Shown here one piece after another: positions 218 through 17,248 of a stretch of DNA of 33,560 nucleotides. The first letter of the stretch is position 1. Every line of letters begins with the position of its first letter. The stretch comes from Bauldia sp. Lineage in GTDB: Bacteria > Pseudomonadota > Alphaproteobacteria > Rhizobiales > Kaistiaceae. The position numbers and the translations under genes are program-made. The notes under the pieces are model-generated. The model ran no database searches. It saw nothing but the letters and a program-made list of their open reading frames with translations, and was not told the DNA's origin. Where the stretch lies: contig NZ_JAGRLA010000084.1 in assembly GCF_020442045.1 (NCBI RefSeq), positions 1-33,560 on the forward strand. Reading direction: 5' to 3'.

Positions 218-757
218 GTGAGCGAGGTCCATTTCCGCTCGCGCAGGATGCGTAGCTTCTCGATCGGCGACGCCGCCCTTTCCGACATTGATGGCCTCGT
301 GCGGCTGGAGGAAGCCTCCTTCGGCTCCGACCGCATTTCACGGCGAAGCTTCCGCTGGCTGATCCGCTCGGCGAGCGCAATCTGCCGCGTGGCGCGGGCG
401 GGCGATGCGATTGCCGGCTATGCCGTGGTGCTGACGCGTGACGGCGGTTCGGTCGCACGCCTCTATTCGATCGCGGCCGACAAGCCCTGGCAGGGTATCG
501 GTCTCGCCACGACGCTGATTGCCGACGCCGAGCGGGCGGCCCGCGATCGTGGCATGACCCGGCTGCGGCTCGAAGTGCGGGAGGACAATAGCGGCGCGAT
601 CCGGCTTTACGAAAGGCTGGGCTTCGGGCGCTCGGGCCTTCGCGCCGAATATTATGCCGACAAGGCGAATGCCATCCGCTACGAGAAACGGTTGCCCGCC
701 CTTTGGCCGCCACGCGCAGCCACCGCATCGCGCCGAAACAGACAACCTGCAGGATAG
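218..757 (+). CDS. GNAT-family N-acetyltransferase (RimI-like)
   Basis: This 179-residue single-domain protein probably transfers an acetyl group from acetyl-CoA to an amine. The acetyl-CoA pyrophosphate-binding segment of the GNAT fold is visible as QGIGLATTLIADAE around residues 92-105. The C-terminal motif typical of RimI-like enzymes (NSGAIRLYERLGF) follows near residues 123-135. The reading frame begins with GTG at 218; an ATG at 248 (MRSFSIGD) is an equally credible start and would shorten the protein by 10 residues. It ends 7 bases before the ATP-grasp ligase gene, so the two are almost certainly cotranscribed. GNAT proteins next to RLAN-type ATP-grasp ligases are a known genomic association, proposed to modify a small peptide or amino-acid conjugate. 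The substrate is unknown. It is not RimI itself, whose context differs. Confidence 0.85.
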   Translation: MSEVHFRSRRMRSFSIGDAALSDIDGLVRLEEASFGSDRISRRSFRWLIRSASAICRVARAGDAIAGYAVVLTRDGGSVARLYSIAADKPWQGIGLATTLIADAERAARDRGMTRLRLEVREDNSGAIRLYERLGFGRSGLRAEYYADKANAIRYEKRLPALWPPRAATASRRNRQPAG

Positions 758-764
758 CCGAACC

Positions 765-4026: not shown

Positions 4027-5004
4027 TCACCCTCCTAAATACTCAATCTCTGCGCGCATTTGATCGCCGCTCAGGTCCATTCCGAGCAGAACCGACAGGA
4101 GCACCCGCGCTTTCTGACCGCTCAGGTCTCCCGCGAACACGATTCCCGCTTCGGCCAAGGTCTTGCCGCCGCCGTTGCCGTAGATTGGCTTCACGCGTCC
4201 CCTTTGGCAGCGGCTGGTCATGATGACCGGAATACCCTTCTTGATCACGTCGGCGGCGGCCGCGGTAACGGCGGGAGTGGCGTTGCCCCGCCCGAACCCC
4301 TCCAGTACCAGGGCCTGCGCTCCATTGTCGGCGGCGAAGCGCACATAGCGGTCGCTGGTTCCCATGGCGAGCTTGATCAGGTCGATATCCGTCGCGACCC
4401 GGTCAGCATCATAGACGCGGCGCAACATGGGTTTGCGATGCACGACGACACGGTCGCCGTCGATGTCGCCGAGCTTGCCGTGCTCAGCAGAAAGGAAGGT
4501 GTCGGTGCGTGACGTATGGGATTTCGTGACGTCGCGCGCGGCATGGAATTCGTGGTCGAAGCAGATCACAGCTCCCAGGCCGCATGCCTCGTCGGATGCG
4601 GCGAGGCGGAGGGAGTCGGCCAGGTTCTGCGGGCCGTCGGGGTTTGGCTCGTCGGCGGCATGCTGGGCACCCGTGTAGACGATAGGCTTGTCCGACCCGA
4701 CGACGAGATCGGCCATGAAGGCGCTCTCCTCCATCGTATCCGTTCCGTGCGCGACGACGACGCCGTCGAAACCATCTTCGAGGCGCCTGGAAACATGCCG
4801 CGCGAGGGAAAAGCTGAGCGGCAGATCCATGGCGTAGCTGCCCACCTTGCAGAAGTCGTCGACGGTAACGTCTATCTCTCCAATCGGGTAAGTCAGCATG
4901 GCCCGCAATTCGGACCCGGTAATGCTTGCCGTCACATGCCCGCTATGTGGATCGCGCTGTGACGCGATCGTCCCTCCCGTCGTTATCAGGCATACTTTCC
5001 GCAT
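4027..5004 (-). CDS. Asparaginase-family amidohydrolase, cytoplasmic
   Basis: The protein has 325 residues from the ATG at 5004-5002; a longer frame reaching 5193 overlaps the upstream regulator gene. Both threonine motifs of the family are present: TTGGTIA with catalytic Thr12 and HGTDTMEE with Thr88-Asp89. The family hydrolyses the side-chain amide of asparagine or glutamine, releasing ammonia. No signal peptide is seen. By eye, the substrate-carboxylate pair Ser58-Gln59 of E. coli AnsB appears here as Ser56-Tyr57, and no tyrosine stands at the usual flexible-loop position (HVTASITG). A substrate other than asparagine is therefore plausible. It lies 97 bases downstream of the LacI-type regulator on the same strand and faces away from the importer operon. 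That suggests it is part of the same regulon and works on the imported compound or a breakdown product. Confidence 0.88.
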   Translation of the reverse strand: MRKVCLITTGGTIASQRDPHSGHVTASITGSELRAMLTYPIGEIDVTVDDFCKVGSYAMDLPLSFSLARHVSRRLEDGFDGVVVAHGTDTMEESAFMADLVVGSDKPIVYTGAQHAADEPNPDGPQNLADSLRLAASDEACGLGAVICFDHEFHAARDVTKSHTSRTDTFLSAEHGKLGDIDGDRVVVHRKPMLRRVYDADRVATDIDLIKLAMGTSDRYVRFAADNGAQALVLEGFGRGNATPAVTAAAADVIKKGIPVIMTSRCQRGRVKPIYGNGGGKTLAEAGIVFAGDLSGQKARVLLSVLLGMDLSGDQMRAEIEYLGG

Positions 5005-5101
5005 TCGAAGGCCTCGTTGAAGTGTCTGTTTGATTGAATTTCGGATGAGGTAGGAGAGGCGCCCGCAGGAAGACGCCGGCACAGAGACGGAGAGGCTGGA
5101 G

Positions 5102-6127
5102 CTATCTCTCCAGACGGCCTCGCGACGAATCGCGGACGACCAGATAAGGAGTAAGCCGCCGGGAGGCGACGGCTTCTCCGTCCATTCGGGCAAGGATCAT
5201 CTCGATAGCCGTGCGACCCATGACGTCGATAGGCACGCGCACGCTGGAAAGCGGCACCAACAGGTCGTCCGCGATGGTGATGTCGTTGTAGCCGACGACC
5301 GCGATATCCCTTCCGACCTCGAGCCTTTCGTCGCGGATCACGCCCATCACGCCGATGGCGGAATAGTCGTTGACGGCAAAGATGGCGGTTGGCCGAGGCC
5401 GCATGGCGAGCAGTTCCCTTGCCGCCCGGCGGCCGGCCGCGGCATCGAAACCGGCATTGATGACCATTTCGGGAGGGAGGACCATGTCCTCCTTTGCCAG
5501 TGCATCAAGAAAACCCTTCGCCCGGACGACGCCCGAGCTGGCGTAGCTCGGGCCGTTAACGATAGCTATGTGTCGATGACCTATGTCGAGAAAGTGCCGT
5601 GCGACGATCGCTCCTCCTACCTCGTCGTCCCACGTCACCGAAGGGTGGCTTCCCGACGAGCGGTTGAACAGGATGAACGGCACGTTGCGCTCCGCAAGTT
5701 CGTCGAGGAAGGGCGCCTCGAGATGCGCGTCCCCAATCAACAGGCCGTCGAACCTGCGGTCGAGATAGTGCTCGATCCTTCGCCGCTGTTGCTCGGGGTC
5801 GTCTCCGGACGAGCCGCCAACCGCGAGATAGCCGCGCGATTGCGCATGCTGTTCGATGGATTCATAGACCGCGGCCATGACCACGTCGGTCAGGCGCGTA
5901 ACGACGACGCCGAGCGCATGCGTCCGGCGGCTCCTGAGGCTGGCTGCCCAGACATCGGGCCGATAGCCGAGCTGATCGGCCAAACGCCTTATCTCTTGCG
6001 CGACCTCGCTGTCGGAGTTCGCCGGGCGTTGCCGCAACACGCGCGACACGGTGGAAACGTTGACGCCCGCCATGTCCGCGATGGAACGCATGGTGGTTCG
6101 TCCTGGCTTCGTCGTATCCTTCGCCAT
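5102..6127 (-). CDS. LacI-family transcriptional regulator
   Basis: This 341-residue protein carries the LacI-type helix-turn-helix at its N-terminus (SIADMAGVNVSTVSRVLRQR, about residues 15-34). A hinge region and a periplasmic-binding-protein-like sensor domain follow, containing FDGLLIGDA, AIFAVNDYSAIGVM and the dimer-core segment IAVVGYNDITIADDL. It is transcribed away from the ABC importer operon, from a 296-base intergenic region that contains a perfect 30-bp palindrome with CG-centred half operators (6349-6378). A repressor of the importer operon, released by a ligand related to the transported compound, is the natural reading. A GAGAGGGGA Shine-Dalgarno sequence precedes the ATG at 6127. 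The asparaginase-like gene follows in the same direction. Confidence 0.92.
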   Translation of the reverse strand: MAKDTTKPGRTTMRSIADMAGVNVSTVSRVLRQRPANSDSEVAQEIRRLADQLGYRPDVWAASLRSRRTHALGVVVTRLTDVVMAAVYESIEQHAQSRGYLAVGGSSGDDPEQQRRRIEHYLDRRFDGLLIGDAHLEAPFLDELAERNVPFILFNRSSGSHPSVTWDDEVGGAIVARHFLDIGHRHIAIVNGPSYASSGVVRAKGFLDALAKEDMVLPPEMVINAGFDAAAGRRAARELLAMRPRPTAIFAVNDYSAIGVMGVIRDERLEVGRDIAVVGYNDITIADDLLVPLSSVRVPIDVMGRTAIEMILARMDGEAVASRRLTPYLVVRDSSRGRLER

Positions 6128-6315
6128 ATCCCCTCTCTCGCTCCGGCTTAGCGACGACAGTCTGCTATCTGGCGAACGCTAACGGCAAGCAGGTCGATAC
6201 CGCATCGGTAGCCCGTCGTGGGACGCGCATGGCGCCTCGGCAGCCGGTTCGTGATCACGATCGCCGCTCGCCATCGAATTGTCCGTCGCAAAAGTCTCGG
6301 CTCACCTGGGCACCC

Positions 6316-6345
6316 TTGACACGAATAAGCTAACCGTGATGTTAA
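6316..6345 (+). promoter_or_regulatory. Promoter of the ABC importer/catabolic operon
   Basis: A perfect -35 box TTGACA (6316-6321) is followed after 18 bases by TGTTAA (6340-6345), with an extended -10 TG at 6337-6338. Predicted transcription start is near 6352, inside the palindromic operator that begins at 6349. This is the geometry expected for repression by blocking initiation. Confidence 0.6.
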
Positions 6346-6348
6346 ATG

Positions 6349-6378
6349 GGTGCAAACGATTGCGCAATCGTTTGCACC
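6349..6378 (+). promoter_or_regulatory. Perfect 30-bp palindrome: double LacI-type operator
   Basis: The left half is GGTGCAAACGATTGC and the right half is its exact reverse complement, with no spacer. Each half contains a LacI-type, CG-centred operator of its own (TGCAAACGATTGCG and its mirror image CGCAATCGTTTGCA). The element can be read as two overlapping operators in opposite orientation or as one extended palindrome. It lies across the predicted start site of the importer operon, and the divergent LacI-type regulator is the obvious binder. Binding is inferred. Confidence 0.75.
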
Positions 6379-6423
6379 GGTCGTCACAACCGCCGGAAGT
6401 CCGGCACAAAGTGGAGGAAGCGA

Positions 6424-7473
6424 ATGCGACAGCATCGCGTTATTGCAACGGTTTGTTTTGCCCTGGTTTGCTCGGGCGCGTTCAGCGTGGTCGATCACGC
6501 CGCCGCCGCCGAGAAGAAGGTGATCGGATTTGCCGTGCCCGTGCTGGCCAATCCGTTCTGGAAGCAGGAAGTCGACTTCGCCAAGCGTGTGGCCGACGAA
6601 CTTGGCGGGGAACTCATCGTCGAGGATGCCAACCAGGACGAAGCGAAGCAGCTTCAGATCATGGATAACTTCGCGTCCCGCAAGGTTGACGCCATCATCA
6701 CGGCGCCGGTGACGACCGCCGTCGCGCCCGCCCTCATCAAGGCTGCCGGCCGCGCCAATATTCCGATTTTCTTCGCCGAGCGCACACCGGGCTTCGAGCC
6801 GGATCCGGATAAGTATCCGCAATATATCGGCTTCGTCGGCGCCGATAGCCATCAGGGCGCATTGGCCACGGCCAAGGCGCTCTATGATGCCGGCGCGCGC
6901 AAGATCGTCGCCACGACCGGCACCAAGGGCAGCTCGATCGCGGAAGACCGCATCGGCGGCCTGAAGGAATTCGCCAGCCAACATCCCGATTTCGAAGTCC
7001 TGCAGATCCAGTACGGGGTCGAACTGCGCGAGGACGGCATCAAGGCGACCGAAAACTATCTCTCCGCCTATCCGGGACCTGGTTTCGACGGTATCTGGAA
7101 CTACGACGATGGCGCGGCGATCGGTGCGGCCGCGGCTCTGAAGCAGGCCAGTCTGACCGGCAAGGTGCTGGTCACCGGCTTCGATGCGGAGGCCGATGGC
7201 GCCCAGGCGATCAAGGCTGGTGATATCCTGGCCGATTCCGGTGGACAGTTCATCGACGGCGGCTTCGCCTATATCATGGCCTTCGACTATCTCAACGGCC
7301 ACCAGCCGAAGAATCCCTACATCGTCATGGACTACCTTTTGGTCACCAAGGACAACGCGGACAAGTACATCGAGCAGTTCGGTTCGGGCTTCCCGCCTTA
7401 CGACATCAAGAATATGTCCGTGACCTACAATCCCGACGCGTCGACCGACGACTACAAGATCGCGATTCAGTAG
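6424..7473 (+). CDS. ABC importer periplasmic binding protein, ribose-type (CUT2)
   Basis: The protein has 349 residues from the ATG at 6424, which has GGAGG at 6413-6417; an in-frame start at 6346 lies within the operator region and is rejected. The N-terminus is a Sec signal peptide ending near HAAAA/EKK (residue about 24). The mature protein is a Peripla_BP_4-type sugar-binding protein with KVIGFAVPVLANPFW, an NPFW segment typical of this family, and KVDAIITAPVTTAVAP. The family binds monosaccharides, polyols or related small ligands in the periplasm and delivers them to a RbsC-type permease. It is the first gene of the rightward operon. The strong stem-loop after its stop codon would favour a higher level of this protein than of the membrane components. 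The ligand is unknown. Confidence 0.9.
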   Translation: MRQHRVIATVCFALVCSGAFSVVDHAAAAEKKVIGFAVPVLANPFWKQEVDFAKRVADELGGELIVEDANQDEAKQLQIMDNFASRKVDAIITAPVTTAVAPALIKAAGRANIPIFFAERTPGFEPDPDKYPQYIGFVGADSHQGALATAKALYDAGARKIVATTGTKGSSIAEDRIGGLKEFASQHPDFEVLQIQYGVELREDGIKATENYLSAYPGPGFDGIWNYDDGAAIGAAAALKQASLTGKVLVTGFDAEADGAQAIKAGDILADSGGQFIDGGFAYIMAFDYLNGHQPKNPYIVMDYLLVTKDNADKYIEQFGSGFPPYDIKNMSVTYNPDASTDDYKIAIQ

Positions 7474-7483
7474 CGACTCGCGT

Positions 7484-7519
7484 GGGCGGGCCGGCGTAAT
7501 GCGCCGGACCGCCCCTTTT
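7484..7519 (+). terminator. Intra-operon stem-loop (partial terminator or mRNA stabiliser)
   Basis: GGGCGG-G-CCGGCG (7484-7496) pairs with CGCCGG-A-CCGCCC (7502-7514): twelve base pairs with one G-A mismatch and a five-base loop TAATG. It is followed by CTTTTG. It lies between the binding-protein gene and the ATPase gene, as often seen in ABC operons where most transcripts stop, or are protected, after the binding-protein gene. Confidence 0.7.
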
Positions 7520-7538
7520 GCGAAGCAGAAAGGCAAAG

Positions 7539-9050
7539 ATGTCGGATTCAGTCCGTCTGGCCTTGAAGGGCGTACGAAAGGCCTACGACGCCTCGACCGT
7601 TCTCGATCTGACGGATTGCGGAGACGTGGTCTTTCGCCGCGGAGAGATCCATGCGCTTGCCGGCGAGAATGGCGCCGGCAAATCCACGCTCGTGAAGGTG
7701 GTGTGTGGACTGGTGCCGCCGACCAAGGGCACGATGGAGCTCGACGGCAGGCCCTATTCGCCCGCAAGCCTCGCCGATGCCCGGGCGGCCGGCGTGGAGA
7801 TCGTGCTTCAGGAACCCGGCCTGGTTCCGGGGTTGACCGTGGCCGACAACCTGTTCCTCGGGCGCGAGCGCCTGTATTCCCGTTTCCGGCTGCTGAACGG
7901 GCGCCGGCGCGACGAACTTGCCCGAAATGCGTTGCAGAGGGTCGGCGCCGTCATACCCACCGGTATGCGCGCCGGCGACCTCGATCTCGAATCGCAGAAA
8001 TTCGTGGAACTCGCCCGTGCCCTGGCATTCCAGCCGCGCGTTCTCGTGGTTGACGAAATGTCGGCCAGCCTGACCAGGCAGGGCGTCGAGCGCATGTCGC
8101 GCGTCCTGCGCGAAGTGGCGGCCGAGGGGACGACCATCCTGTTCATTTCCCATTACTTGGAGGAAACGTTCGACCTGTGCCAGCGCGTGACGGTGCTGAA
8201 GGATGGACGGCATGTCCGCACCCTTGCCACGACCGAACTGGACGAAAGCCAGTTACAGACTCTGATGGTGGGGCGCTCGCTGGTGAGCGAACTCTATCAC
8301 GACGAAGCCCGTGTTCCCACGGCTGCCGGCGCCGCGGTTCTCAGCATCTCGGGCCTGTCGGCCGGCAAGGCGGTACGTGATTTCAACCTCGAAGTCCGGG
8401 GCGGGGAAATCGTCGGACTGGGCGGCCTGGTCGGATGCGGCAGCGAGGACGTCACCTATGCCGTCTTCGGGGTGGGCAATGTGAGCGGCGGCAGGATGGC
8501 GCTGTCGGGCGAACCCTACCGGCCCGGCAGTTCCAGGCAGGCCATCGACAGCGGCGTCGGCTTCGTATCCGGCGACCGCGAGGCCAATGACCTGCTCCTG
8601 CAGGCCACCATCCAGGATAACATCGCCCTGCCGACCTTGCCGATGCGCTCCAGATGGGGCGTCACGTCGCGGCGCGGGGACGCGGTCGAGGCCGGCAAGG
8701 TCATCCTGCAGCTTTCGATCGCCTGCCGTGGTCCGACTGACTATCCGGCCAATCTCAGCGGCGGCAACAGGCAGAAGGTCGTGCTGGGCAAATGGATGCT
8801 GCGCCGCCCCCGGTTGCTGGTGCTGCAGAATCCCACGCGCGGCGTCGACGTCGGCGCCAAGTCCCTGATCTACCGTACCTTGCGGGAGCTGGCGGGCATG
8901 GGCACGGCGATCCTGCTGATCAGCGACGAATTGAACGAGTTGCGCGGGATGAGCGACCGCATCGTCATCATGCGACGCGGCGCGATTGCCGGAGAATTCG
9001 ACGGTTCCACGAATCCGAGCGAGGAGGACCTCGTCGCGTGCATGGTTTGA
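7539..9050 (+). CDS. Sugar-type ABC importer ATPase, two fused nucleotide-binding domains (RbsA-like)
   Basis: The protein has 503 residues from the ATG at 7539, preceded by GAAAGG; a TTG at 7518 lies in the stem-loop tail and is unlikely. Domain 1 has an intact Walker A (GENGAGKST, 42-50), Q-loop Gln91, Walker B RVLVVDE (Glu173) and His205, but its signature region reads GDLDLES instead of LSGGQ. Domain 2 is the opposite: its P-loop position reads GLVGCGSED with no lysine, and its Walker B reads LLVLQNP (Gln430, Asn431 in place of Asp-Glu), but the signature LSGGN (406-410) is intact. One competent composite ATP site is therefore predicted, using the Walker motifs of domain 1 and the signature of domain 2. 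It energises the permease encoded 11 bases downstream. Confidence 0.92.
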   Translation: MSDSVRLALKGVRKAYDASTVLDLTDCGDVVFRRGEIHALAGENGAGKSTLVKVVCGLVPPTKGTMELDGRPYSPASLADARAAGVEIVLQEPGLVPGLTVADNLFLGRERLYSRFRLLNGRRRDELARNALQRVGAVIPTGMRAGDLDLESQKFVELARALAFQPRVLVVDEMSASLTRQGVERMSRVLREVAAEGTTILFISHYLEETFDLCQRVTVLKDGRHVRTLATTELDESQLQTLMVGRSLVSELYHDEARVPTAAGAAVLSISGLSAGKAVRDFNLEVRGGEIVGLGGLVGCGSEDVTYAVFGVGNVSGGRMALSGEPYRPGSSRQAIDSGVGFVSGDREANDLLLQATIQDNIALPTLPMRSRWGVTSRRGDAVEAGKVILQLSIACRGPTDYPANLSGGNRQKVVLGKWMLRRPRLLVLQNPTRGVDVGAKSLIYRTLRELAGMGTAILLISDELNELRGMSDRIVIMRRGAIAGEFDGSTNPSEEDLVACMV

Positions 9051-9061
9051 AGGAAAAGGAA

Positions 9062-10033
9062 ATGGTGCAGACTGCCGAGCAAGGCGCAGCAACCGGCAAG
9101 GTCTTGAAGACCGGCGGACGCGAGGTGGCGCGCAAATTCATCCCGTTTGCGGCGCTGGCTCTCCTTATCGTCATCTTCGGCATTGCCGCGCCGGATCGCT
9201 TCATGACGTTCGACAATGCCAGGACAGTTCTCGTCCAGACAGTCGTCCTGGCAATCGTCGCGTTCGGCTCCACGCTTGTGATCATCGCGGGCTCCATCGA
9301 CCTCTCGGTCGGCTCGGTGGCCGCGCTTTCCAGCATGGTGGGGGCCAGCGTCGCCATGGAGGTGAACGGGCTGGCCGGCCTGATTGCCGCTATCGTGGTT
9401 GGAATGATCGCCGGCGCCGCCAACGGCATCGGCCTGGCCTATCTGAAAGTGCCCTCGTTCATCATGACGCTGGGAATGCTGTCGGTAGCGCGCGGGCTGA
9501 CGCTGCTTTATTCCGGCACGCAGCCGATCATGACCCCCGGCGATTGGGACTGGATGGGCGTAGCGCCCGGTATCTACATTCCCGGCATCGTCGTCTTTAT
9601 CGCCACTTTCTGTCTCTTCGGGTTCACGGCATTCGGCCGGTACGTCTCGGCCGTGGGCGGTCAGGAGAAGGTCGCGTCGATGTCCGGCGTGCGGGTCAAC
9701 CAGGTCAAGGTGCTGGTGTTCGTCATTTCCGGCATCACGGCCGCGATCGGCGGGGTCGTCCTCGCCTCGCGCGTCGGCGCGGCCACGCCGATGGCCGGAA
9801 CGGGCATGGAACTCACCGTTATCGCGGCGGTCGTCCTGGGCGGAACCCCGCTGACAGGCGGCATGGGCAGCCTGGTGAACACCATCGTCGGCGCACTGAT
9901 CATCAACATCCTGCTCAACGGTTTGATCATCGTGGGGATAGGCGCCGAACTGCAGATCATCGCCCAGGGCCTGGTCCTCTTCGCGGCCGTGCTCGTGTCG
10001 CTGGACCGCAAGAAGATCGGCATCATCAAGTAG
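9062..10033 (+). CDS. ABC importer permease, RbsC-like
   Basis: This 323-residue integral membrane protein has about eight to ten hydrophobic segments. It has the family segment SIDLSVGSVAALSSMVGA near residues 80-97 and the conserved end-loop AAVVLGGTPLTGGMGSL. It is a BPD_transp_2 permease, which forms a homodimer or heterodimer with the fused ATPase. No second permease gene is present, so a homodimer is expected. The ATG at 9062 follows AGGAAAAGGAA, 11 bases after the ATPase stop; a longer frame starting at 8792 runs through the ATPase gene and is a shadow. The next gene starts 17 bases after its stop. Confidence 0.92.
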   Translation: MVQTAEQGAATGKVLKTGGREVARKFIPFAALALLIVIFGIAAPDRFMTFDNARTVLVQTVVLAIVAFGSTLVIIAGSIDLSVGSVAALSSMVGASVAMEVNGLAGLIAAIVVGMIAGAANGIGLAYLKVPSFIMTLGMLSVARGLTLLYSGTQPIMTPGDWDWMGVAPGIYIPGIVVFIATFCLFGFTAFGRYVSAVGGQEKVASMSGVRVNQVKVLVFVISGITAAIGGVVLASRVGAATPMAGTGMELTVIAAVVLGGTPLTGGMGSLVNTIVGALIINILLNGLIIVGIGAELQIIAQGLVLFAAVLVSLDRKKIGIIK

Positions 10034-10050
10034 ACGAAACCAGACCCATC

Positions 10051-11133
10051 ATGCGGAACTATTCGATTGCGGTGATTCCCGGCGACGGGATCGGCGTGGA
10101 GGTGATGCCGCCAACGCTCGACATCCTCGATGCCGTCGCCGCCAGCCACGGCTTCGGCCTGTCCTACACGCATCTGGCCTGGGGCTGCGAGTTCTACGCC
10201 CGCAACGGCCGGATGATGGACGAGGACGGCCTGGAACAGCTGGCGCGCCACGACGCCATCCTGCTCGGGGCGGTCGGATATCCGGGCGTGCCGGACCATG
10301 TTTCGCTGTGGGGCCTCCTCATCCCCATCCGGCGCGCCTTCCGCCAGTACATCAACCTGCGCCCGATCCGCCTCCTGGAGGGCGTGCAGGGGCCGTTGGC
10401 GAACAAGGACGGCACGATCGACATCCTCATCGTCCGTGAGAACAACGAGGGCGAATATTCCGAAGCCGGCGGTCGCCTCTATCGCGGCACGGCCGACGAA
10501 CTGGCGATTCAAGAGGCGCTCTTTACCCGGCGCGGCATCGAACGCGCCGCCAGCTACGCAGCCGACCTCGCCAAGGGCCGCTCCGGCTCCATGGTGTCGG
10601 CTACCAAGTCGAACGGCATCATCCATACCATGCCCTTCTGGGACGAGGTGTGCGGTGCCGTCGCCAAGGACAAGGGAGTCGGCATCAGCTTCCGCCACAT
10701 CGATGCGCTGGCGGCGGATTTCGTGCTCCATCCCGAACGGCTGGACGTGGTGGTCGCTTCGAATCTGTTCGGCGATATTCTGAGCGATCTCGGCGCCGCG
10801 GTTGCCGGGAGTATCGGCATCGCGCCGTCTGCGAACCTCAATCCGGAGGGCGAGTTCCCATCCATGTTCGAGCCGGTCCACGGCTCGGCGCCCGACATCG
10901 CCGGGCAGGACATCGCCAATCCCATGGGCCAGGTCTGGTCCGCCGCCATGATGCTGGACCATCTCGGCGAGAAGGCGGCTGCTGCCGAAATCATGGGGGC
11001 GCTGGAGTCTAGTTTGGCATCTTCGCCGATCCGTACGAGGGATCTCGGCGGGCAGGCGTCCACGAAGGAATTCGCGCAGGAAATCAAGAGCCGGCTTGGG
11101 GCCGAGGCTGCCGTGCCGGAAAAGGGATCATAG
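10051..11133 (+). CDS. Tartrate/D-malate dehydrogenase-like (isocitrate/isopropylmalate dehydrogenase family)
   Basis: This 360-residue protein has IPGDGIGVEV at its N-terminus. The segment GAVGYPGVPDHVSLWGLL and the following QYINLRPIR mark the tartrate dehydrogenase / D-malate dehydrogenase (decarboxylating) branch rather than LeuB or Icd. Other family elements are LIVRENNEGEYSEAGGR, the metal-binding NLFGDILSDLGAAVAGSIG and FEPVHGSAPDIAGQ. Members use NAD+ and Mn2+ or Mg2+ to oxidise 2-hydroxy-dicarboxylates (D-malate, tartrate, 3-alkylmalates), often with decarboxylation. Its place directly behind the importer genes indicates that a 2-hydroxy-diacid is an intermediate of the imported compound. 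Exact substrate is not predictable. Confidence 0.88.
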   Translation: MRNYSIAVIPGDGIGVEVMPPTLDILDAVAASHGFGLSYTHLAWGCEFYARNGRMMDEDGLEQLARHDAILLGAVGYPGVPDHVSLWGLLIPIRRAFRQYINLRPIRLLEGVQGPLANKDGTIDILIVRENNEGEYSEAGGRLYRGTADELAIQEALFTRRGIERAASYAADLAKGRSGSMVSATKSNGIIHTMPFWDEVCGAVAKDKGVGISFRHIDALAADFVLHPERLDVVVASNLFGDILSDLGAAVAGSIGIAPSANLNPEGEFPSMFEPVHGSAPDIAGQDIANPMGQVWSAAMMLDHLGEKAAAAEIMGALESSLASSPIRTRDLGGQASTKEFAQEIKSRLGAEAAVPEKGS

Positions 11134-11146
11134 AGGGAACCGACTC

Positions 11147-11902
11147 ATGAAACAGGCTGTGATCATCACGGGAGCCGGGATCGGCATCGGCCGGGCGACG
11201 GCTGTCGCTTTCGGAAAGGCCGGCTTCCACGTCGCCGTTACAGACGTGCTGGAGGAACAGGGGCGCAAGGCAGCCGCCGACATCGCGGCGGCCGGCGGCT
11301 CGGCGGCGTTCCACAAGCTGGACGTAACCAGCACCGAGGACGTCGACAAGGTCGTCAGCGGCGTGGTCGATGAATTCGGCGCCCCCTACGCCGTGGTGGC
11401 CAACGCCGGTATCGCCCTGCGCGAGCCGTTCGCCAAGATGAGCGACGAGGGCTGGCAGCGGACGCTGGACGTCGACCTCAACGGCGTTATGCGCCTCTTC
11501 CGTGCTGCCGCCCCGAGCATGCGCGCCGCCCGTAGCGGCAGCATGATCGCCATGTCGTCGATCATGGGCATCGCCTATGGCTGGGACGAGCATGTGCACT
11601 ACTCGGCGGCCAAGTCCGGCGTGATCGGGCTCGTGCGTGCGCTGGCCGTCGAGCTCGCGCCCGAGGGGGTACGGGTGAACGGCATCGCGCCCGGCTATAT
11701 CCGTACCGCGCAGGCCCTCTCGGTCGACCACTCGCTGGGCCCGGAGGGACTGGAGGCGGCCGCGGCCTACATTCCGATGCGGCGCGTCGGCGAGCCCGAG
11801 GATATCGCGGATGTCGCGCTTTTCCTGAGCTCGGAGCAATCGCGCTATGTGACCGGGCAGGTGATCACGGTCGACGGCGGCCTGCTGGTAGGACGCTTCT
11901 GA
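11147..11902 (+). CDS. Short-chain dehydrogenase/reductase (SDR), classical
   Basis: This is a 251-residue classical SDR. The nucleotide-binding motif TGAGIGIG is at residues 9-16, NAG at 86-88, and the catalytic set is a serine near 137, Tyr152 and Lys156 (YSAAK). The C-terminus EQSRYVTGQVITVDGG is typical. Asp33 at the end of the second beta strand (AVTDVLEE) favours NAD(H) over NADP(H). It starts 13 bases after the previous stop, with GAGGGAA upstream, and is part of the same operon. It probably oxidises a hydroxyl group of the imported compound or an intermediate. A gluconate or 3-oxoacyl type annotation would be over-specific. Confidence 0.9.
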   Translation: MKQAVIITGAGIGIGRATAVAFGKAGFHVAVTDVLEEQGRKAAADIAAAGGSAAFHKLDVTSTEDVDKVVSGVVDEFGAPYAVVANAGIALREPFAKMSDEGWQRTLDVDLNGVMRLFRAAAPSMRAARSGSMIAMSSIMGIAYGWDEHVHYSAAKSGVIGLVRALAVELAPEGVRVNGIAPGYIRTAQALSVDHSLGPEGLEAAAAYIPMRRVGEPEDIADVALFLSSEQSRYVTGQVITVDGGLLVGRF

Positions 11903-11974
11903 CGGTCGGCACGGGCCGACCGCATGACCGCCGATTTGCAACAGCTTGAAACGTCATCACGCCGGGAGAAGATC

Positions 11975-12877
11975 ATGGCCAAGAAGATTTATTGCGCGCT
12001 CGGCACGGATATCGACTCCGTCGCCGGCTGGATCGGATCTTACGGCGGCGGCGACAGCCCATCCGACATCCAGCGCGGTATCTTCGCGGCGGAGGTCGGT
12101 ATACCGCGGTTGCTCAGGCTCTTCCGCAAGTACGACCTGCGCACCACCTTCTTCATCCCGGGTCATTCGCTCGAAACCTTCCCGAAGGAGATGAAGATGA
12201 TCGTGGATGCCGGCCACGAGGTTGGCGCCCATGGCTACCTCCACGAGAACCCCATCGCGATGACGCCGCAACAGGAGGAGGACGTGCTGGCGAAGTCGAT
12301 CGAACTGATCGACGGGCTGACCGGCAAGGCACCGCTCGGATATGTGGCGCCGTGGTGGGAAATGTCTCCGGTGACGGCCGACCTTCTCCGGAAATACGGC
12401 TTCAGCTACGATCACAGCCAGGGCTATCGCGACTTCCAGCCCTTCTACGCACGCGTCGGTGACGAGTGGACCGTCATTGACTACACCCGGAAGGCCGCGG
12501 ACTGGATGCACCCGCTGAAACACGGCAGGGAAATCGATCTGGTCGATATCGCCGCCAACTGGTATGTCGACGACCTGCCGCCGATGATGTTCATGAAAAA
12601 GTCTCCGAACAGTCACGGCTTCGTCAATCCCAGGCATCTCGAAGAGATGTGGCGTGACCAGTTCGACTGGGTATACCGCGAGATGGATTATGGCGTGTTC
12701 GCCTGCACCATTCATCCGGACGTATCGGGCCGGCCGCAGGTCCTGCTGATGCTCGAGCGACTGATCGAATACATCAACGGCCACGAAGGCATCGAATGGG
12801 CGACGTTGGAGGAGATCGCCGCCGACTTTCGTCAGCGCTATCCGTTCGAAAGCGGCAAACGGCCGGAGGTGGTCTGA
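11975..12877 (+). CDS. CE4-superfamily hydrolase, PgdA (H. pylori)/cyclic-imidase-like
   Basis: The protein has 300 residues from the ATG at 11975, which has GGGAGAA in place; an upstream in-frame ATG at 11924 is less likely. The sequence follows the subgroup typified by H. pylori PgdA and by bacterial cyclic imide hydrolases. It has [16 protein letters not shown] at the N-terminus with the metal-binding Asp (Asp12 or Asp14), [13 protein letters not shown] with His86 and His90, and [12 protein letters not shown]. There is no signal peptide, so it is cytosolic and unlikely to act on peptidoglycan. Within a small-molecule catabolic operon, hydrolysis of a cyclic imide or an N-acyl group is more plausible. 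It is followed by a CxxC protein and a G3E GTPase, which may supply its metal ion. Confidence 0.87.
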
Positions 12878-12882
12878 AACCC

Positions 12883-13176
12883 ATGTGCAGCGCCTGCGGC
12901 TTCCCCTCGCTGCCGGGCCATTGGACAGATGCGGGAGCGCGGAATCCGGGAAGCCGGCTGCGGTTGCGCTTCACGCGGTTGGCGATGGTGAACCGACTGC
13001 TCGCGCCCTATCGGCTGCGCGCCCATGACGATGGCTCGACGCCGGGCCTGCAATTGATGGCGCCGAGCGGCGAGCGCGTCCTGGTTCCCGATCTCGAAGC
13101 ACTGTGGACGGAAGCGGCACGGTTGGCCGGCACGCCCATCGATCCGCTGTCGCCACGCTCGTTGGGCGATGCGTGA
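12883..13176 (+). CDS. Conserved small CxxC protein, function unknown
   Basis: This 97-residue protein starts at the ATG at 12883, five bases after the CE4 gene, and ends with its stop codon inside the start of the GTPase gene (ATGCGTGA, 8-base overlap). The N-terminus MCSACGFPSLPGHWTDAG carries two cysteines and one histidine that could bind a metal ion. The remainder resembles a small alpha/beta unit without recognisable catalytic motifs. Tight coupling to a G3E GTPase suggests a partner role in metal delivery. I know of no functional characterisation; this is an inference from context. Confidence 0.75.
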   Translation: MCSACGFPSLPGHWTDAGARNPGSRLRLRFTRLAMVNRLLAPYRLRAHDDGSTPGLQLMAPSGERVLVPDLEALWTEAARLAGTPIDPLSPRSLGDA

Positions 13177-14158
13177 GGGCGCGCGCGCCGACGGCCGCCT
13201 GCCGCTGACCATCATTGGCGGTTTTCTCGGTGCCGGCAAAAGCACGTGGCTGCGCCATCAACTTCATCGGAAGGCGTTCGGCGCCGTCCACATCCTCGTC
13301 AACGAGGCCGCCGAGATGCCGGTCGACAACCTGCTTCTCAGCAAGGCCGACCGTGTTTCGGTTCTGGCCGGCGGCTGCGCCTGTTGCGACGGTCGTGGCG
13401 CGCTGGTGGCCGCCCTGCGCGCGATTTGCGCCGAACAGGACCGGCCGGGATCCTGCCGTATCGACCGGATTTTGCTTGAAACCAGCGGCCTCGCCGATCC
13501 CGGCGCGATAGCAAGGCTCGTGTCCGACGATCCCATGCTGGCCCGACGCATCATGCTCGAAGACATCATCGCGCTGGTCGACGCGCTGCACGGCCCGGTC
13601 CAGCTTCGGGAGGAGGCTCTTGGAAGGCGCCAGGTCGAGTCGGCCGGGCGGCTCATCGTCACCAAGCCACGGGAGGTTCCACCCCTGCAGGTTGCGCGTC
13701 TGGTCAATACCCTGCGCCAGCTCAATCCGGTGGCGCCGGTCGAAGGCGCCGAGCATGGCGAACCCTTCGGACTGCCACCAGTTCCCGATGCCGAACCCTA
13801 TGCGCTTCCCGACCTGGCGGGCGCCAGTGCAGGGCCGATCAGGTCCTGCCGCCTCGACATCTCGGGCGGTAACGGCTGGGCGGCATTCTCCGTGTGGTTG
13901 TCGGCCCTGCTCGCCGCGCGCGGCGACGATATCGTACGGGTGAAGGGCGTGGTTACCGACCTCGACGGCCGGCTCTTGGTGCAGTCCGTGCGCAAGCAGG
14001 TGCAGCCGCCGGAGATGCTGCCCGAACCGGAGCAAGACAGCCCGACCCAGGCAACACAGAACGATGTTCTCATCCTCATGGGACGCGGGATCAATGAGGA
14101 GCTTCTCGCTCACGCCTGGACGAGATTTTGCGATGGGCCCGCAATCGCTTGTCTTTGA
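13169..14158 (+). CDS. G3E-family (COG0523/CobW-like) GTPase, putative metallochaperone
   Basis: This 329-residue protein has Walker A GGFLGAGKST (17-26), the family metal-binding CxCC inside GGCACC (68-73), and the Walker B / switch segment LLETSGLADP (102-111). The usual guanine-specificity motif NKxD is replaced by VTKPRE around residues 164-169, so guanine selectivity may be relaxed. A CobW C-terminal-like region follows. Members insert or deliver Zn, Co or Fe to partner enzymes. The gene overlaps the small CxxC gene and is the last of the operon, two genes after the metal-dependent CE4 hydrolase. That makes the hydrolase the most likely client. No zinc-starvation (Zur) site was noticed, so a general zinc-homeostasis role is less likely. 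Confidence 0.88.
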   Translation: MREGARADGRLPLTIIGGFLGAGKSTWLRHQLHRKAFGAVHILVNEAAEMPVDNLLLSKADRVSVLAGGCACCDGRGALVAALRAICAEQDRPGSCRIDRILLETSGLADPGAIARLVSDDPMLARRIMLEDIIALVDALHGPVQLREEALGRRQVESAGRLIVTKPREVPPLQVARLVNTLRQLNPVAPVEGAEHGEPFGLPPVPDAEPYALPDLAGASAGPIRSCRLDISGGNGWAAFSVWLSALLAARGDDIVRVKGVVTDLDGRLLVQSVRKQVQPPEMLPEPEQDSPTQATQNDVLILMGRGINEELLAHAWTRFCDGPAIACL

Positions 14159-14168
14159 GCGGCCTAAC

Positions 14169-14238
14169 CGCCTGGGACAGCGGCGATATTTCCTATTCGA
14201 CGGACGGCTCGGTTGACCGGAATATCGGCTTCCAGGCG
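14169..14238. repeat. Interrupted long inverted repeat in the gap after the GTPase gene
   Basis: CGCCTGG (14169-14175) pairs with CCAGGCG (14232-14238). Inside it, CGATATTTCC (14184-14193) pairs, with one bulge, with GGAATATCG (14219-14227). The enclosed loop is about 25 bases. The gap from 14159 to 14380 otherwise shows no gene. No T-run follows, so it is not a standard terminator; it may still end the operon transcript or be the remnant of a mobile palindrome. Confidence 0.5.
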
Positions 14239-14380
14239 AGTAAAGCGCCATTCAACGACGAAGATGCGAAGTCCGGGCTGGGTCCGGCATGCACCAATCC
14301 ACCGGACGTGATTCGAACACATCGCAATCGAAACTCGAAACCGCCAATCCGTCGCCCCGCACAACCTGTGAGGCTCACAC

Positions 14381-14671
14381 CTAGAGCGGCGTGTAGTCGA
14401 CCTCGAGAAAGTCGTCGACTTCGGTCATCCAGCGGTCGCGGACGAAAGCGACATGATCGGGATGGTCATTGTATCCGGCATAGGCGTCGCCGTCGGTGAA
14501 TTCCATCGAGAAGCCGTAGGTGAAGTCGTTCTTCGGGCTCACTTCCCGCAGTTGCTCGAACTTCTCGACGCCGGGTATCGCCGCCAGAACCTTCGCATCT
14601 TCGAGGAAGGCTCTTTCCTGCGGCGAGCCGGGGGCATGCTTAAGGCGAAAGACAACGGTATGGCGGATCAT
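14381..14671 (-). CDS. Dabb-domain (stress-responsive alpha/beta barrel) protein
   Basis: The protein has 96 residues from the ATG at 14671-14669. It begins with MIRHTVVFRLKHAPGS and contains DFTYGFSMEFTDGDAYAGYNDHPDHVAFV, the typical Dabb signature with the conserved YxxHPxH-like region. The family forms small dimeric ferredoxin-like barrels; described roles range from stress proteins to small-molecule cyclases. It is transcribed alone, convergent with the GTPase operon. No substrate is predicted. Confidence 0.85.
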   Translation of the reverse strand: MIRHTVVFRLKHAPGSPQERAFLEDAKVLAAIPGVEKFEQLREVSPKNDFTYGFSMEFTDGDAYAGYNDHPDHVAFVRDRWMTEVDDFLEVDYTPL

Positions 14672-14818
14672 CGGCTGTTCCCGCAGGTTGTGCGACTGAA
14701 CGCAGTCTAGCCCGCGATTTCCCGCCTCCAAAAGCCAAAATCAGCCACCGGAGCCTTGACGATCCATAGCCGCCTGACGACAGTGGCGCGGCAATCGCCG
14801 GGCGAAATGGAGACCAGC

Positions 14819-15316
14819 ATGGACGCGTATGAAATACTGAAGGAGACGCCCTTCTTCTCGGAAGTGCTCGATGAGTCCGAGTTGAAGATCCTCTCCGACC
14901 ACGCCCGGACCGTGGTCTTCGACAAGGGCACCAAGCTGATCGAGGAGGATGGGCCCGGCCATTCGATGTTCGTGATCGTCAAGGGCGAGGCCGAGGTAAC
15001 GGTCGCGGACGAGGACGGCGCCGTCGCCACACTTGGTGCCGGCGGGATACTCGGCGAGATGTCGTTGCTGACCGGCGCCCCGCGCAGCGCGACCGTGACG
15101 GCGACCGAGACGATCGAGGCCCTCGAGGTCGACAAGTCGGCGCTTGCCAACGTGCTGTGGATGTCTCCGACCCTGGTCGATCGTTTCGCCACCATGCTGA
15201 TGCGTCGTCAGCGCGAACTCGACAAGATGTATGGTGGCGTCGCATGGGGCATGCTGAGGCCCGGCAAGGCCGAGCTCACCAGCATGATCCGGGACTTCCT
15301 CCAGACGACCGAGTAA
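14819..15316 (+). CDS. Stand-alone cyclic-nucleotide-binding domain protein
   Basis: The protein has 165 residues from the ATG at 14819, with GGAGA five bases upstream; an ATG at 14756 has no clear Shine-Dalgarno sequence. It is a Crp-like beta-roll: FVIVKGEAEVTVAD, then the phosphate-binding cassette GEMSLLTGAPRSATVTA with its Glu and Arg. Both residues needed to hold a cyclic phosphate are therefore present. The C-terminal part is helical, and no helix-turn-helix or kinase domain is fused. It may act as a partner-binding sensor or have a structural role. It lies 126 bases upstream of lepA on the same strand. Confidence 0.85.
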   Translation: MDAYEILKETPFFSEVLDESELKILSDHARTVVFDKGTKLIEEDGPGHSMFVIVKGEAEVTVADEDGAVATLGAGGILGEMSLLTGAPRSATVTATETIEALEVDKSALANVLWMSPTLVDRFATMLMRRQRELDKMYGGVAWGMLRPGKAELTSMIRDFLQTTE

Positions 15317-15442
15317 CCGCAGGCGAGCAATATCCTTTCGGCAGACAGAATCGGGGCCTGGCGGCGTGCCCGGTCGTATTGCGCGGCGGCCGCCTAAGTC
15401 CTCGCTTGCCCAGCCTTCCCGTCACAGTGTATCAGCGCGGCC

Positions 15443-17248
15443 ATGACGACCGTGTCCCTGGATAACATTCGCAACTTCGCAATCATCGCCCATATCGACC
15501 ACGGCAAGTCGACACTCGCAGACCGGCTGATCCAGCTCTGCGGTGGGCTTTCCGAGCGGGAGATGAAGGCGCAGGTGCTCGATTCGATGGACATCGAGCG
15601 CGAGCGGGGCATCACGATCAAGGCGCAGACCGTGCGCCTGACCTACCGGGCGCGCGATGGACAGGACTATGTCCTCAATCTCATCGATACGCCCGGGCAT
15701 GTCGACTTCGCCTATGAAGTCAGCCGGTCGCTCGCCGCATGCGAGGGCTCGCTGCTCGTCGTCGATGCGAGCCAGGGCGTGGAGGCGCAGACGCTCGCCA
15801 ACGTCTATCAGGCGATCGACAACGACCATGAGATCGTTCCTGTGCTCAACAAGGTCGACCTTCCCGCGGCCGAGCCCGAGCGGATCAAGCAGCAGATCGA
15901 GGACGTGATCGGCATCGACGCCAGCAATGCGATCGAGATTTCCGCCAAGACCGGCATCGGTGTCCCCGAAGTGCTCGAAGCGATCGTCACCCGCCTGCCG
16001 CCGCCTAGGGGCGACCGCAATGCACCGCTGAAGGCGCTCCTCGTCGACAGCTGGTACGACGCCTATCTCGGTGTCGTCGTGCTGGTCCGAATCGTCGACG
16101 GTGTGTTGAAGAAGGGGATGCGGATTCGCATGCTCGGCGCGGAAGCGACCCACGACGTCGAATCCGTCGGTGTCTTCACGCCGAAGCTGGTCGGCTGGCC
16201 GGAGCTCGGGCCCGGCGAGCTCGGCTTCTTCACCGGCTCGATCAAGGAGGTCGCGGATACCGCGGTCGGCGACACGATCACCGAGGAGCGGCGGCGGGCC
16301 GATGCGCCGCTGCCGGGCTTCCGGCCGGCCCAGCCGGTTGTCTTCTGCGGCATCTTTCCCGTCGATGCCGGGGATTTCGAGGACCTGCGCACCGCGATCG
16401 GCAAGCTGCGCCTCAACGACGCGGCCTTCACCTTTGAAATGGAGACGTCGGCGGCGCTGGGCTTTGGATTCCGCTGCGGTTTCCTCGGCCTGCTCCATCT
16501 CGAGATCATCCAGGAACGGCTGAGCCGGGAGTTCGATCTCGACCTGATCGCGACGGCCCCGTCGGTGGTCTATCGCATCACCCTGACCAACGGCGACGAG
16601 ATCGAGCTCCACAACCCGGCCGACATGCCGGACCCGGTCAAGATCCGCGAAATTTCCGAGCCCTGGCTTCGCGCGACGATCATGACTCCGGACGACTATC
16701 TCGGCGCGATCCTCAAGCTCTGCCAGGAACGCCGCGGCATCCAGGTCGACCTCTCCTATGTCGGCAGCCGCGCTGTGGTCCAGTATGACCTGCCGCTCAA
16801 CGAAGTGGTGTTCGACTTCTACGACCGACTGAAGTCGGTCTCGAAGGGTTATGCATCCTTCGACTATCAATTGACCGACTACCGGGTCGGCGATTTGGTC
16901 AAGATGCAGATTCTGGTCAACGCCGAGCCCGTCGACGCGCTTTCCATCCTCGTCCATCGCAGCCAGGCCGATCGGCGCGGGCGGGCAATGTGCGAGAAGC
17001 TCAAGGAACTGATCCCGCCCCACATGTTCCAGATCCCGATCCAGGCGGCGATCGGCGGCAAGGTGATCGCCCGCGAGACGATACGGGCGCTGCGCAAGGA
17101 CGTTCTGGCCAAGTGCTATGGCGGCGACGTCACCCGCAAGCGCAAGCTGCTCGACAAGCAGAAGGCCGGCAAGAAGAAGATGCGCCAGTTCGGCAAGGTC
17201 GATATTCCTCAGGAAGCCTTCATCGCCGCGCTGAAGATGGACGACTAG
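15443..17248 (+). CDS. lepA: Elongation factor 4 (LepA), ribosome back-translocating GTPase
   Basis: This protein has 601 residues, the normal LepA length. The GTPase domain shows G1 AHIDHGKST, the G2 region [12 protein letters not shown]3 DTPGHVDF, and G4 NKVD ([10 protein letters not shown]). Domains II, III and V follow, then the LepA-specific C-terminal domain with [17 protein letters not shown]. LepA binds translating ribosomes and helps them in stalled or mis-translocated states, and in 30S assembly. Start ATG at 15443 agrees with the family N-terminus ([15 protein letters not shown]). No lepB (signal peptidase) follows; otsB is next after 76 bases. Confidence 0.98.

What the first reader, a model, noticed from the sequence alone, without database searches (positions are those of the whole stretch)
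4027..14158. Candidate undescribed catabolic system: LacI-controlled importer with amidase, CE4 imidase-like hydrolase, hydroxy-diacid dehydrogenase and metallochaperone
Seen: a divergent regulator-amidase pair and an eight-gene rightward operon with a CUT2-type importer, tartrate/D-malate-type dehydrogenase, SDR, PgdA/imidase-like CE4 protein, CxxC protein and G3E GTPase. Known: CE4 proteins of this subgroup include cyclic imide hydrolases, the asparaginase family removes amide nitrogen, and the tartrate dehydrogenase branch oxidises 2-hydroxy-dicarboxylates. Inference: a cyclic imide or lactam-like ligand is imported, opened to a half-amide by the CE4 protein, deamidated by the asparaginase-like enzyme and oxidised by the two dehydrogenases. 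I know of no described pathway with exactly this gene set. A sugar-acid or N-acyl-sugar substrate remains possible.
Basis: partly seen in the sequence, partly recalled or inferred. Interest (0 to 1): 0.7.

Follow-up and report, generated by a model that had tools for sequence, protein, structure and literature searches.

The report
Imide-eating operon with metal helpers
Ten neighbouring bacterial genes encode a sugar-type importer and enzymes predicted to oxidise, open and strip ammonia from a small nitrogen ring (a cyclic imide), plus two proteins that likely load metal into the ring-opening enzyme; the enzyme core recurs beside other importers in other bacteria, so it can be tested as a general route for eating such rings.

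Summary
The gene set is real (4027-14158): asparaginase-family and LacI genes leftward; eight genes rightward (CUT2 binding protein, ATPase, permease; tartrate-type dehydrogenase; SDR; CE4; Cys protein; G3E GTPase). CE4 is a close relative of H. pylori PgdA (3qbu), itself the closest structural relative of the fungal cyclic imide hydrolase HxnM, with its active-site residues kept. New here: (1) a 30-bp perfect palindrome before the binding-protein gene, unique in the 4.19-Mb genome and kept in the one other complete locus found; (2) CE4-Cys protein-G3E follow one another in 61 of 80 related loci; (3) close SDR homologs occur in 7 of 41 genomes (own included), once each, all within 9 kb of CE4; (4) of 8 asparaginase-family genes in 25 family genomes, 6 lie within 8 kb of CE4. 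Best reading: the SDR makes the imide from a hydroxylactam, CE4 opens it, the asparaginase-like enzyme releases ammonia (the order of fungal HxnW-HxnM-HxnN), with Cys protein and G3E as metal helpers. No activity or substrate is tested.

The parts
4027..5004 (-). asparaginase-family amidohydrolase (325 aa, no leader by eye), predicted half-amidase; only PF00710 match in the genome
5102..6127 (-). LacI-family regulator, upstream of and in tandem with the asparaginase-like gene
6316..6321 (+). TTGACA hexamer, also present upstream of the palindrome in L042; -35 candidate (no full consensus promoter found by the scan)
6349..6378 (.). 30-bp perfect palindrome (core 24-mer at 6352-6375), predicted LacI-family operator; unique in the genome at up to 3 mismatches; core kept with one change in L042 (5430-5453)
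6424..7473 (+). CUT2 periplasmic binding protein (349 aa, signal peptide by eye)
7539..9050 (+). CUT2 duplicated ATPase (503 aa)
9062..10033 (+). CUT2 permease (323 aa)
10051..11133 (+). tartrate/D-malate-type dehydrogenase (360 aa, TIGR02089); accessory, absent from L042
11147..11902 (+). short-chain dehydrogenase (251 aa); the close homologs found in relatives all lie near CE4; predicted hydroxylactam-to-imide oxidase
11975..12877 (+). CE4 / HpPgdA-type protein (300 aa), predicted cyclic imide hydrolase; D12, D14, H86, H90, W127, H247 kept
12883..13176 (+). 97-aa protein starting Met-Cys-x-x-Cys-Gly, no Pfam family; predicted metal helper of CE4
13169..14158 (+). G3E/COG0523 GTPase with CxCC motif (329 aa), predicted metallochaperone for CE4

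Best explanation
This is a likely catabolic gene cluster in which a sugar-type (CUT2) ABC importer is predicted to bring in a hydroxylated nitrogen ring compound, an SDR would oxidise a ring hydroxyl beside the nitrogen to give a cyclic imide, a CE4 enzyme would open the imide to a half-amide, and an asparaginase-family enzyme would release its ammonia, while a small Cys protein and a G3E GTPase likely load metal into the CE4 enzyme. Shown: the genes, their families, the unique 30-bp palindrome before the import gene, the recurrent triplet CE4 - Cys protein - G3E, and the linkage of this SDR and of asparaginase-family genes to CE4 in other genomes. Inferred: every enzymatic step, the order of steps (taken from the fungal HxnW-HxnM-HxnN pathway), the metal transfer and the operator's function. 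In this strain the tartrate/D-malate-type dehydrogenase would finish a four-carbon 2-hydroxy-diacid; a 3-hydroxysuccinimide (malimide or tartrimide type) is then the simplest imide, because ring opening would give 2-hydroxysuccinamate, the hydroxy analogue of asparagine, and oxidative decarboxylases of this family act on malate-type acids (recalled). That substrate guess is weak (about 0.2); the ring-opening and deamidation core is the firmer part.
For: CE4 matches 3qbu/4ly4 over residues 1-290 at 1.6e-143; the residues that PMC3084791 gives as ligands or near the ion (D12, D14, H86, H90, H247, also W127) are invariant in 9 of 9 aligned sequences, window included. That paper found no activity on the glycan parts tested nor on allantoin, a small closed pocket and no leader; HxnM's closest solved relative is 3qbu, and HxnM shares 64% with a P. 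putida imidase. The SDR gene hxnW and the imidase gene hxnM are a conserved divergent pair in several classes of Pezizomycotina, though not in Aspergillus. Here, SDR homologs at E <= 1e-50 occur in 7 of 41 genomes (self included; up to 66 best candidates scored per genome), one each, all within 9 kb of CE4; about 1e-12 by chance with the near-duplicate G023 left out, relatedness not corrected. PF00710 genes at E < 1e-30: 8 in the 25 genomes of the family, 6 within 8 kb of CE4, self included. Among the 80 best CE4 loci of 546, within 4.5 kb: 12 asparaginase, 26 amidase-signature, 7 N-carbamoylase-type, 44 any of these. CE4-linked asparaginases fall in branches about 32% identical to each other, so recruitment seems repeated. 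Cys protein plus G3E follow CE4 in 61 of 80, in that order in 61 of 61; the eight best non-self G3E matches in 41 genomes all lie within 1.8 kb of CE4. CxCC in 58 of 62 G3E. Operator.
Against: No activity is measured. 36 of 80 CE4 loci show none of the three amidase types within 4.5 kb (27 of the 80 have less than 4 kb on one side; L042, whose asparaginase gene is 6.6 kb off, is among the 36), and 18 of 80 lack G3E, 13 of them Actinobacteria by record title, so CE4 can probably work without these helpers. Two of 8 family asparaginase genes (G004, G015) are not near CE4, and the three in other families (G029 twice, G033) are in genomes without a close CE4; one of those, on G029:C68, does lie about 1 kb from a distant CE4-type match. 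In G008 the SDR is only 44% identical, and in G001 the CE4 beside it is a fragment (residues 1-106). The importer resembles ribose binders, which does not point to an imide. CE4 also sits beside dihydropyrimidinase and N-carbamoylase genes, so hydantoin-type rings remain possible. The tartrate-type dehydrogenase is unlinked to CE4 elsewhere, though G003 and G004 are fragmented drafts. The scan found no consensus promoter. HxnW itself was not available for comparison.
Confidence: 0.5

Rival explanations
1. Sugar or N-acyl-sugar catabolism: the CUT2 importer takes up an ordinary or amino sugar, CE4 removes an N-acyl group, and the SDR and tartrate-type dehydrogenase oxidise the sugar or sugar acid.
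For: LacI and CUT2 families usually serve sugars (recalled); best binding-protein relatives in the PDB are sugar and ribose binders; the SDR scores best with FabG and glucose-dehydrogenase models.
Against: HpPgdA has a closed small pocket and no activity on GlcNAc or chitotriose; no sugar kinase, isomerase or aldolase among the ten cluster genes; it leaves the asparaginase linkage unexplained; in the 80 related loci a PotD-type importer lies within 8.5 kb in 35 and a CUT2-type one in 4 (by seed matches; 36 show none of the importers sought).
Confidence: 0.15
2. Hydantoin or dihydropyrimidine route: CE4 opens a ureido ring (hydantoin-like), and the amide hydrolase finishes it.
For: Dihydropyrimidinase-type genes lie within 4.5 kb of CE4 in 14 of 80 loci; N-carbamoylase, HyuA/HyuB and racemase genes in L120; PuuE allantoinase is the nearest NCBIfam model.
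Against: In those loci a dihydropyrimidinase would already do the ring opening; no dihydropyrimidinase, N-carbamoylase or Hyu domain was found among the ten cluster genes or the ten neighbouring open frames scanned (the window beyond 23163 was not scanned); TIGR03212 is far below its cut-off (87 against 424.6); HpPgdA was inactive on allantoin.
Confidence: 0.15
3. One reading: an imide is imported as such, opened and deamidated, and both dehydrogenases act afterwards on the hydroxy-diacid.
For: The tartrate-type dehydrogenase and the SDR are neighbours in the operon, 13 nt apart; TIGR02089 is above its cut-off.
Against: The SDR stays with CE4 where no tartrate-type dehydrogenase is near (L042; relatives); the one pathway I found in print with SDR + HpPgdA-type imidase + amidase places the SDR before ring opening.
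Confidence: 0.15

Closest known systems
Lower part of the Aspergillus nidulans nicotinate pathway: HxnW (SDR), HxnM (cyclic imide hydrolase), HxnN (amidase)
   Same: SDR + HpPgdA-type CE4 imidase + amide hydrolase; the SDR and imidase genes are a conserved pair in several Pezizomycotina classes (not in Aspergillus) and near neighbours here.
   Different: Here the amidase is of the asparaginase family instead of the FAAH-like type; there are no upstream pyridine hydroxylases among the ten genes; a CUT2 importer, LacI regulator, Cys protein and G3E GTPase are added.
Helicobacter pylori HP0310 / HpPgdA (3qbu, 4ly4)
   Same: Match over residues 1-290 without N-terminal extension, all active-site residues.
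   Different: Recorded as peptidoglycan deacetylase, with no activity found on the defined substrates tested in PMC3084791; genomic setting in the window is catabolic with an amide hydrolase.
COG0523 / G3E GTPase subfamilies, such as the nitrile hydratase activator Nha3
   Same: CobW domains and CxCC motif; encoded beside a presumed client metalloenzyme.
   Different: Client would be a CE4 hydrolase; a Met-Cys-x-x-Cys protein with no Pfam family stands between the two in 61 of 61 loci that have both helpers. The words imide, hydantoin, allantoinase and asparaginase do not occur in the main text of the 2009 survey PMC2770081.
CUT2 ribose/galactofuranose-type ABC importers
   Same: Binding protein, duplicated ATPase, permease.
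   Different: Below the cut-off of every NCBIfam equivalog listed; only 20 relatives at E <= 1e-60 among 5.8 billion proteins, of 7998 candidates scored.

Membership tests
HpPgdA / cyclic imide hydrolase group of CE4 | Near full-length similarity to 3qbu without leader peptide | tested here: met
   1.6e-143, residues 1-290 of 300; alignment starts at Met1
HpPgdA / cyclic imide hydrolase group of CE4 | Metal ligands D14, H86, H90 and water-contacting D12, H247 | tested here: met
   invariant in 9 of 9; roles from PMC3084791
HpPgdA / cyclic imide hydrolase group of CE4 | Hydrolysis of cyclic imides to half-amides | not testable with these tools
   needs an assay
PuuE allantoinase (TIGR03212) | Score above the equivalog cut-off | tested here: not met
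   87.1 against 424.6 bits
Peptidoglycan GlcNAc deacetylase (PgdA proper) | NCBIfam PgdA equivalog cut-off and secretion signal | tested here: not met
   42.6 against 400 bits (NF045821); no leader by eye
CUT2 ABC importer | Peripla_BP_4 binding protein, duplicated ATPase, BPD_transp_2 permease | tested here: met
Tartrate dehydrogenase TIGR02089 | Score above the cut-off | tested here: met
   512.6 against 470.4 bits; PRK08194 just missed (496.6 against 501)
L-asparaginase I/II (TIGR00519/00520) | Score above the subfamily cut-offs | tested here: not met
   157.7 against 260.5 and 174.4 against 314.3 bits; broad family PF00710 met
COG0523 G3E GTPase | cobW domain with CxCC motif | tested here: met
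COG0523 G3E GTPase | Metal transfer to a client | not testable with these tools
   needs biochemistry
HxnW-HxnM-HxnN type lower pathway | SDR and imidase genes kept together across genomes | tested here: met
   7 of 7 close SDR homologs (self included) within 9 kb of CE4
HxnW-HxnM-HxnN type lower pathway | SDR of the HxnW lineage | not tested
   HxnW sequence not held
HxnW-HxnM-HxnN type lower pathway | Amidase of the amidase-signature (FAAH-like) type | tested here: not met
   asparaginase family here; amidase-signature genes within 4.5 kb in 26 of 80 related loci

The most novel reading that the evidence does not exclude
Bacteria hold a widespread, importer-swappable SDR-imidase-amidase module for cyclic imides made from hydroxylated lactams, whose imidase is metallated by its own pair of helpers: a COG0523 GTPase and a new family of small proteins with an N-terminal Met-Cys-x-x-Cys that hands over the metal. 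In this strain the module is fed by a rare sugar-type importer and ends in a tartrate-type dehydrogenase, giving a complete route from a sugar-like hydroxylactam through malimide or tartrimide to central metabolism.
Probability: 0.3. Interest if true: 0.72.

Novelty: new variant of a known kind. Interest (0 to 1): 0.52.

Why it matters
Relatives of this CE4 protein are common (7839 of 8000 scored candidates at E <= 1e-20), and those listed with a name are called polysaccharide, chitooligosaccharide or peptidoglycan deacetylases. The linkage found here suggests what many of them more likely do, and with which partners. It also offers a COG0523 GTPase a concrete client and an unnamed small protein a concrete role, both testable in one co-expression experiment, and it proposes a bacterial counterpart of steps that the fungal paper reports as seen only in its own pathway.

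Tried and rejected
Allantoinase and peptidoglycan deacetylase labels: far below cut-offs. Tartrate-type dehydrogenase as a core step: rejected, absent from L042 and unlinked to CE4 at all 8 non-self places (G003, G004 and G008 hold CE4 on another contig, G003 and G004 being fragmented drafts; the other genomes have no CE4 match above 50% identity). My script held 7 of those 8 places; G026:C126 was left out, and so was the genome's own second copy on C8. Asparaginase specificity from residues: the amino-group pocket looked altered by eye, but L-asparaginases such as 8h44 vary too, so no claim is made. Fold of the Cys protein: AlphaFold2 mean pLDDT 84 with a poor N-terminus, no PDB match at E <= 0.001, best 0.7. 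Further operators in the genome: none at up to 3 mismatches. Importer elsewhere: 1 of 397 order genomes, self only, with the five best candidates scored per genome; no plasmid at E <= 1e-50. Cys protein in the class: 22 of 385 genomes at E <= 1e-5, their neighbourhoods not examined. Papers: the listings showed none on CE4-G3E or CE4-asparaginase clusters; the listings were partial (20 of 27, 15 of 428, 15 of 28), and (tartrate dehydrogenase) gave nothing of use. Papers read as passages only: PMC9304392, PMC3084791 (also its abstract), PMC2770081, PMC8478523; PMC9863593 seen as a listing; the P. putida YZ-26 imidase paper (Shi 2007) seen only as a reference.


Full report
WHAT IS THERE. Ten genes fill 4027-14158: leftward an asparaginase-family gene (4027-5004) behind a LacI gene (5102-6127), rightward eight packed genes from a CUT2 binding protein (6424) to a G3E GTPase (14158). 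Outside lie an MFS gene on the left and, on the right, a cyclic-nucleotide-binding protein and LepA. The genome (4.19 Mb, 196 contigs) is of the same genus as G003, whose contig C207 has the same length and CE4 position as a Bauldia sp. MAG contig (L087), so Bauldia or near it by inference.

CONTROL REGION. A 30-bp perfect palindrome (6349-6378; core 24-mer 6352-6375) stands 45 bp before the binding-protein start. The 24-mer is kept with one change in L042 inside otherwise diverged DNA, has no second site in the window or the whole genome at up to 3 mismatches, and did not occur in 100 shuffles of the window. Both loci carry TTGACA upstream of it, though no full consensus promoter was found. 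Operator function for the LacI protein is inferred.

CE4. The protein matches H. pylori PgdA (3qbu) at 1.6e-143 over residues 1-290. The active-site residues named in PMC3084791 (passages) are invariant in all 9 aligned sequences, window included. That paper reports a tetramer with a closed small-molecule pocket, no leader, and no activity on GlcNAc, chitotriose or allantoin, while earlier work on crude peptidoglycan did report deacetylation, and says that homologs stand with polyamine importers. PMC9304392 (passages) assigns the related HxnM, from deletion strains and metabolites, the opening of 3-hydroxypiperidine-2,6-dione after the SDR HxnW makes it from a hydroxylactam and before the amidase HxnN; PMC8478523 (passages) reports conserved divergent hxnW-hxnM pairs in several Pezizomycotina classes, not in Aspergillus.

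LINKAGE. I scored 80 named loci (the best 80 of 546) and looked at 16 unnamed relatives with close CE4 (a 17th stretch, L037, had no close CE4) in the same way. In the 80: Cys protein and G3E both within 2.5 kb downstream of CE4 in 61, order CE4-Cys-G3E in 61 of 61; no G3E in 18, 13 of them Actinobacteria by title; asparaginase 12, amidase-signature 26, N-carbamoylase 7, any of the three 44, and 49 with dihydropyrimidinase added, within 4.5 kb; SDR within 8.5 kb in 31. Of the 53 loci with at least 4 kb on each side, 42 have both helpers and 32 an amidase. Importers by seed match within 8.5 kb: PotD-type 35, CUT2-type 4, MFS 5, none of these 36. Background: 315 amidase-signature and 13 PF00710 places in 41 relatives, about 8 and 0.3 per genome, so a chance hit within 4.5 kb would be rare (arithmetic mine; other genomes than the 80). 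Close homologs of the window SDR (E <= 1e-50) exist in 7 of 41 genomes, own included, once each, at 3.1-8.8 kb from CE4 in all six non-self cases; the farthest, in G008, is only 44% identical, in G001 the CE4 is a fragment, and at most 66 candidates were scored per genome. PF00710 at E < 1e-30: 11 places in the 41 genomes, 6 within 8 kb of CE4 including self; within the 25 family genomes 8 places, the same 6 near. Two further PF00710 matches were weak and partial (about 1e-10) and were not counted. Of the three places outside the family, one (G029:C68) lies about 1 kb from a distant CE4-type match. The CE4-linked asparaginases include branches only about 32% identical, and plasmids of Paracoccus, Bradyrhizobium and Rhizobium show an asparaginase gene directly before CE4. 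G3E: the eight best non-self matches in 41 genomes all lie 1.2-1.8 kb from CE4; lower-ranked matches are mixed.

IMPORTER AND ACCESSORY GENES. The importer is rare: 20 proteins at E <= 1e-60 among 5.8 billion, 7998 candidates scored; 1 of 397 order genomes, self only, five candidates scored per genome. The whole set recurs in L042 with identities ASN 77, LacI 83, binding protein 86, ATPase 80, permease 82, SDR 82, CE4 88, Cys protein 76 and G3E 63 percent, without the tartrate-type dehydrogenase. That dehydrogenase therefore looks like an add-on; it hints at a four-carbon hydroxy-diacid, no more.

CYS PROTEIN. M1, C2, C5, G6, W14, G63, W75, D87 and P88 are invariant in 39 of 39, and H13 nearly so. 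It has no Pfam family (one chance-level match among the 39 members); its model has a good core and an uncertain Cys end, and no solved fold matches. An adaptor or metal-handling role is inferred from position and cysteines.

VERDICT. A cyclic-imide catabolic cluster built on a recurrent SDR-CE4-amidase core with a dedicated metal-helper pair is the best reading (0.5). The core chemistry is likelier than the exact substrate. Kind: new variant of a known kind.

Noticed in passing
654-2219 (+): RimK-like ATP-grasp protein with an RLAN N-terminal domain (PF14401), function not examined.
   Followed up: no
L079 (Inquilinus limosus), 7300-16000: The CE4 triplet is flanked by open frames that look by eye like corrinoid-binding and methyltetrahydrofolate methyltransferase proteins, suggesting an N-methylated substrate.
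   Followed up: no
L120 (Sulfitobacter plasmid), 5635-15900: The CE4 triplet stands with a second CE4-type gene, N-carbamoylase, dihydropyrimidinase, racemase and HyuA/HyuB, a possible combined hydantoin and imide locus.
   Followed up: partly
NZ_CP147633.1 and four further Klebsiella plasmid records: HpPgdA-type CE4 genes at about 70% identity lie on Klebsiella plasmids, annotated polysaccharide deacetylase; only listed.
   Followed up: no
L102-L117 (mostly Actinobacteria): CE4 relatives at 68-72% identity mostly stand without Cys protein and G3E (L106 and L108 are exceptions), so the need for metal helpers may differ between lineages.
   Followed up: partly
L089, L091, L092, L094 (Halomonas, Psychrobacter): The G3E GTPase beside CE4 lacks the CxCC motif in these four of 62.
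   Followed up: no
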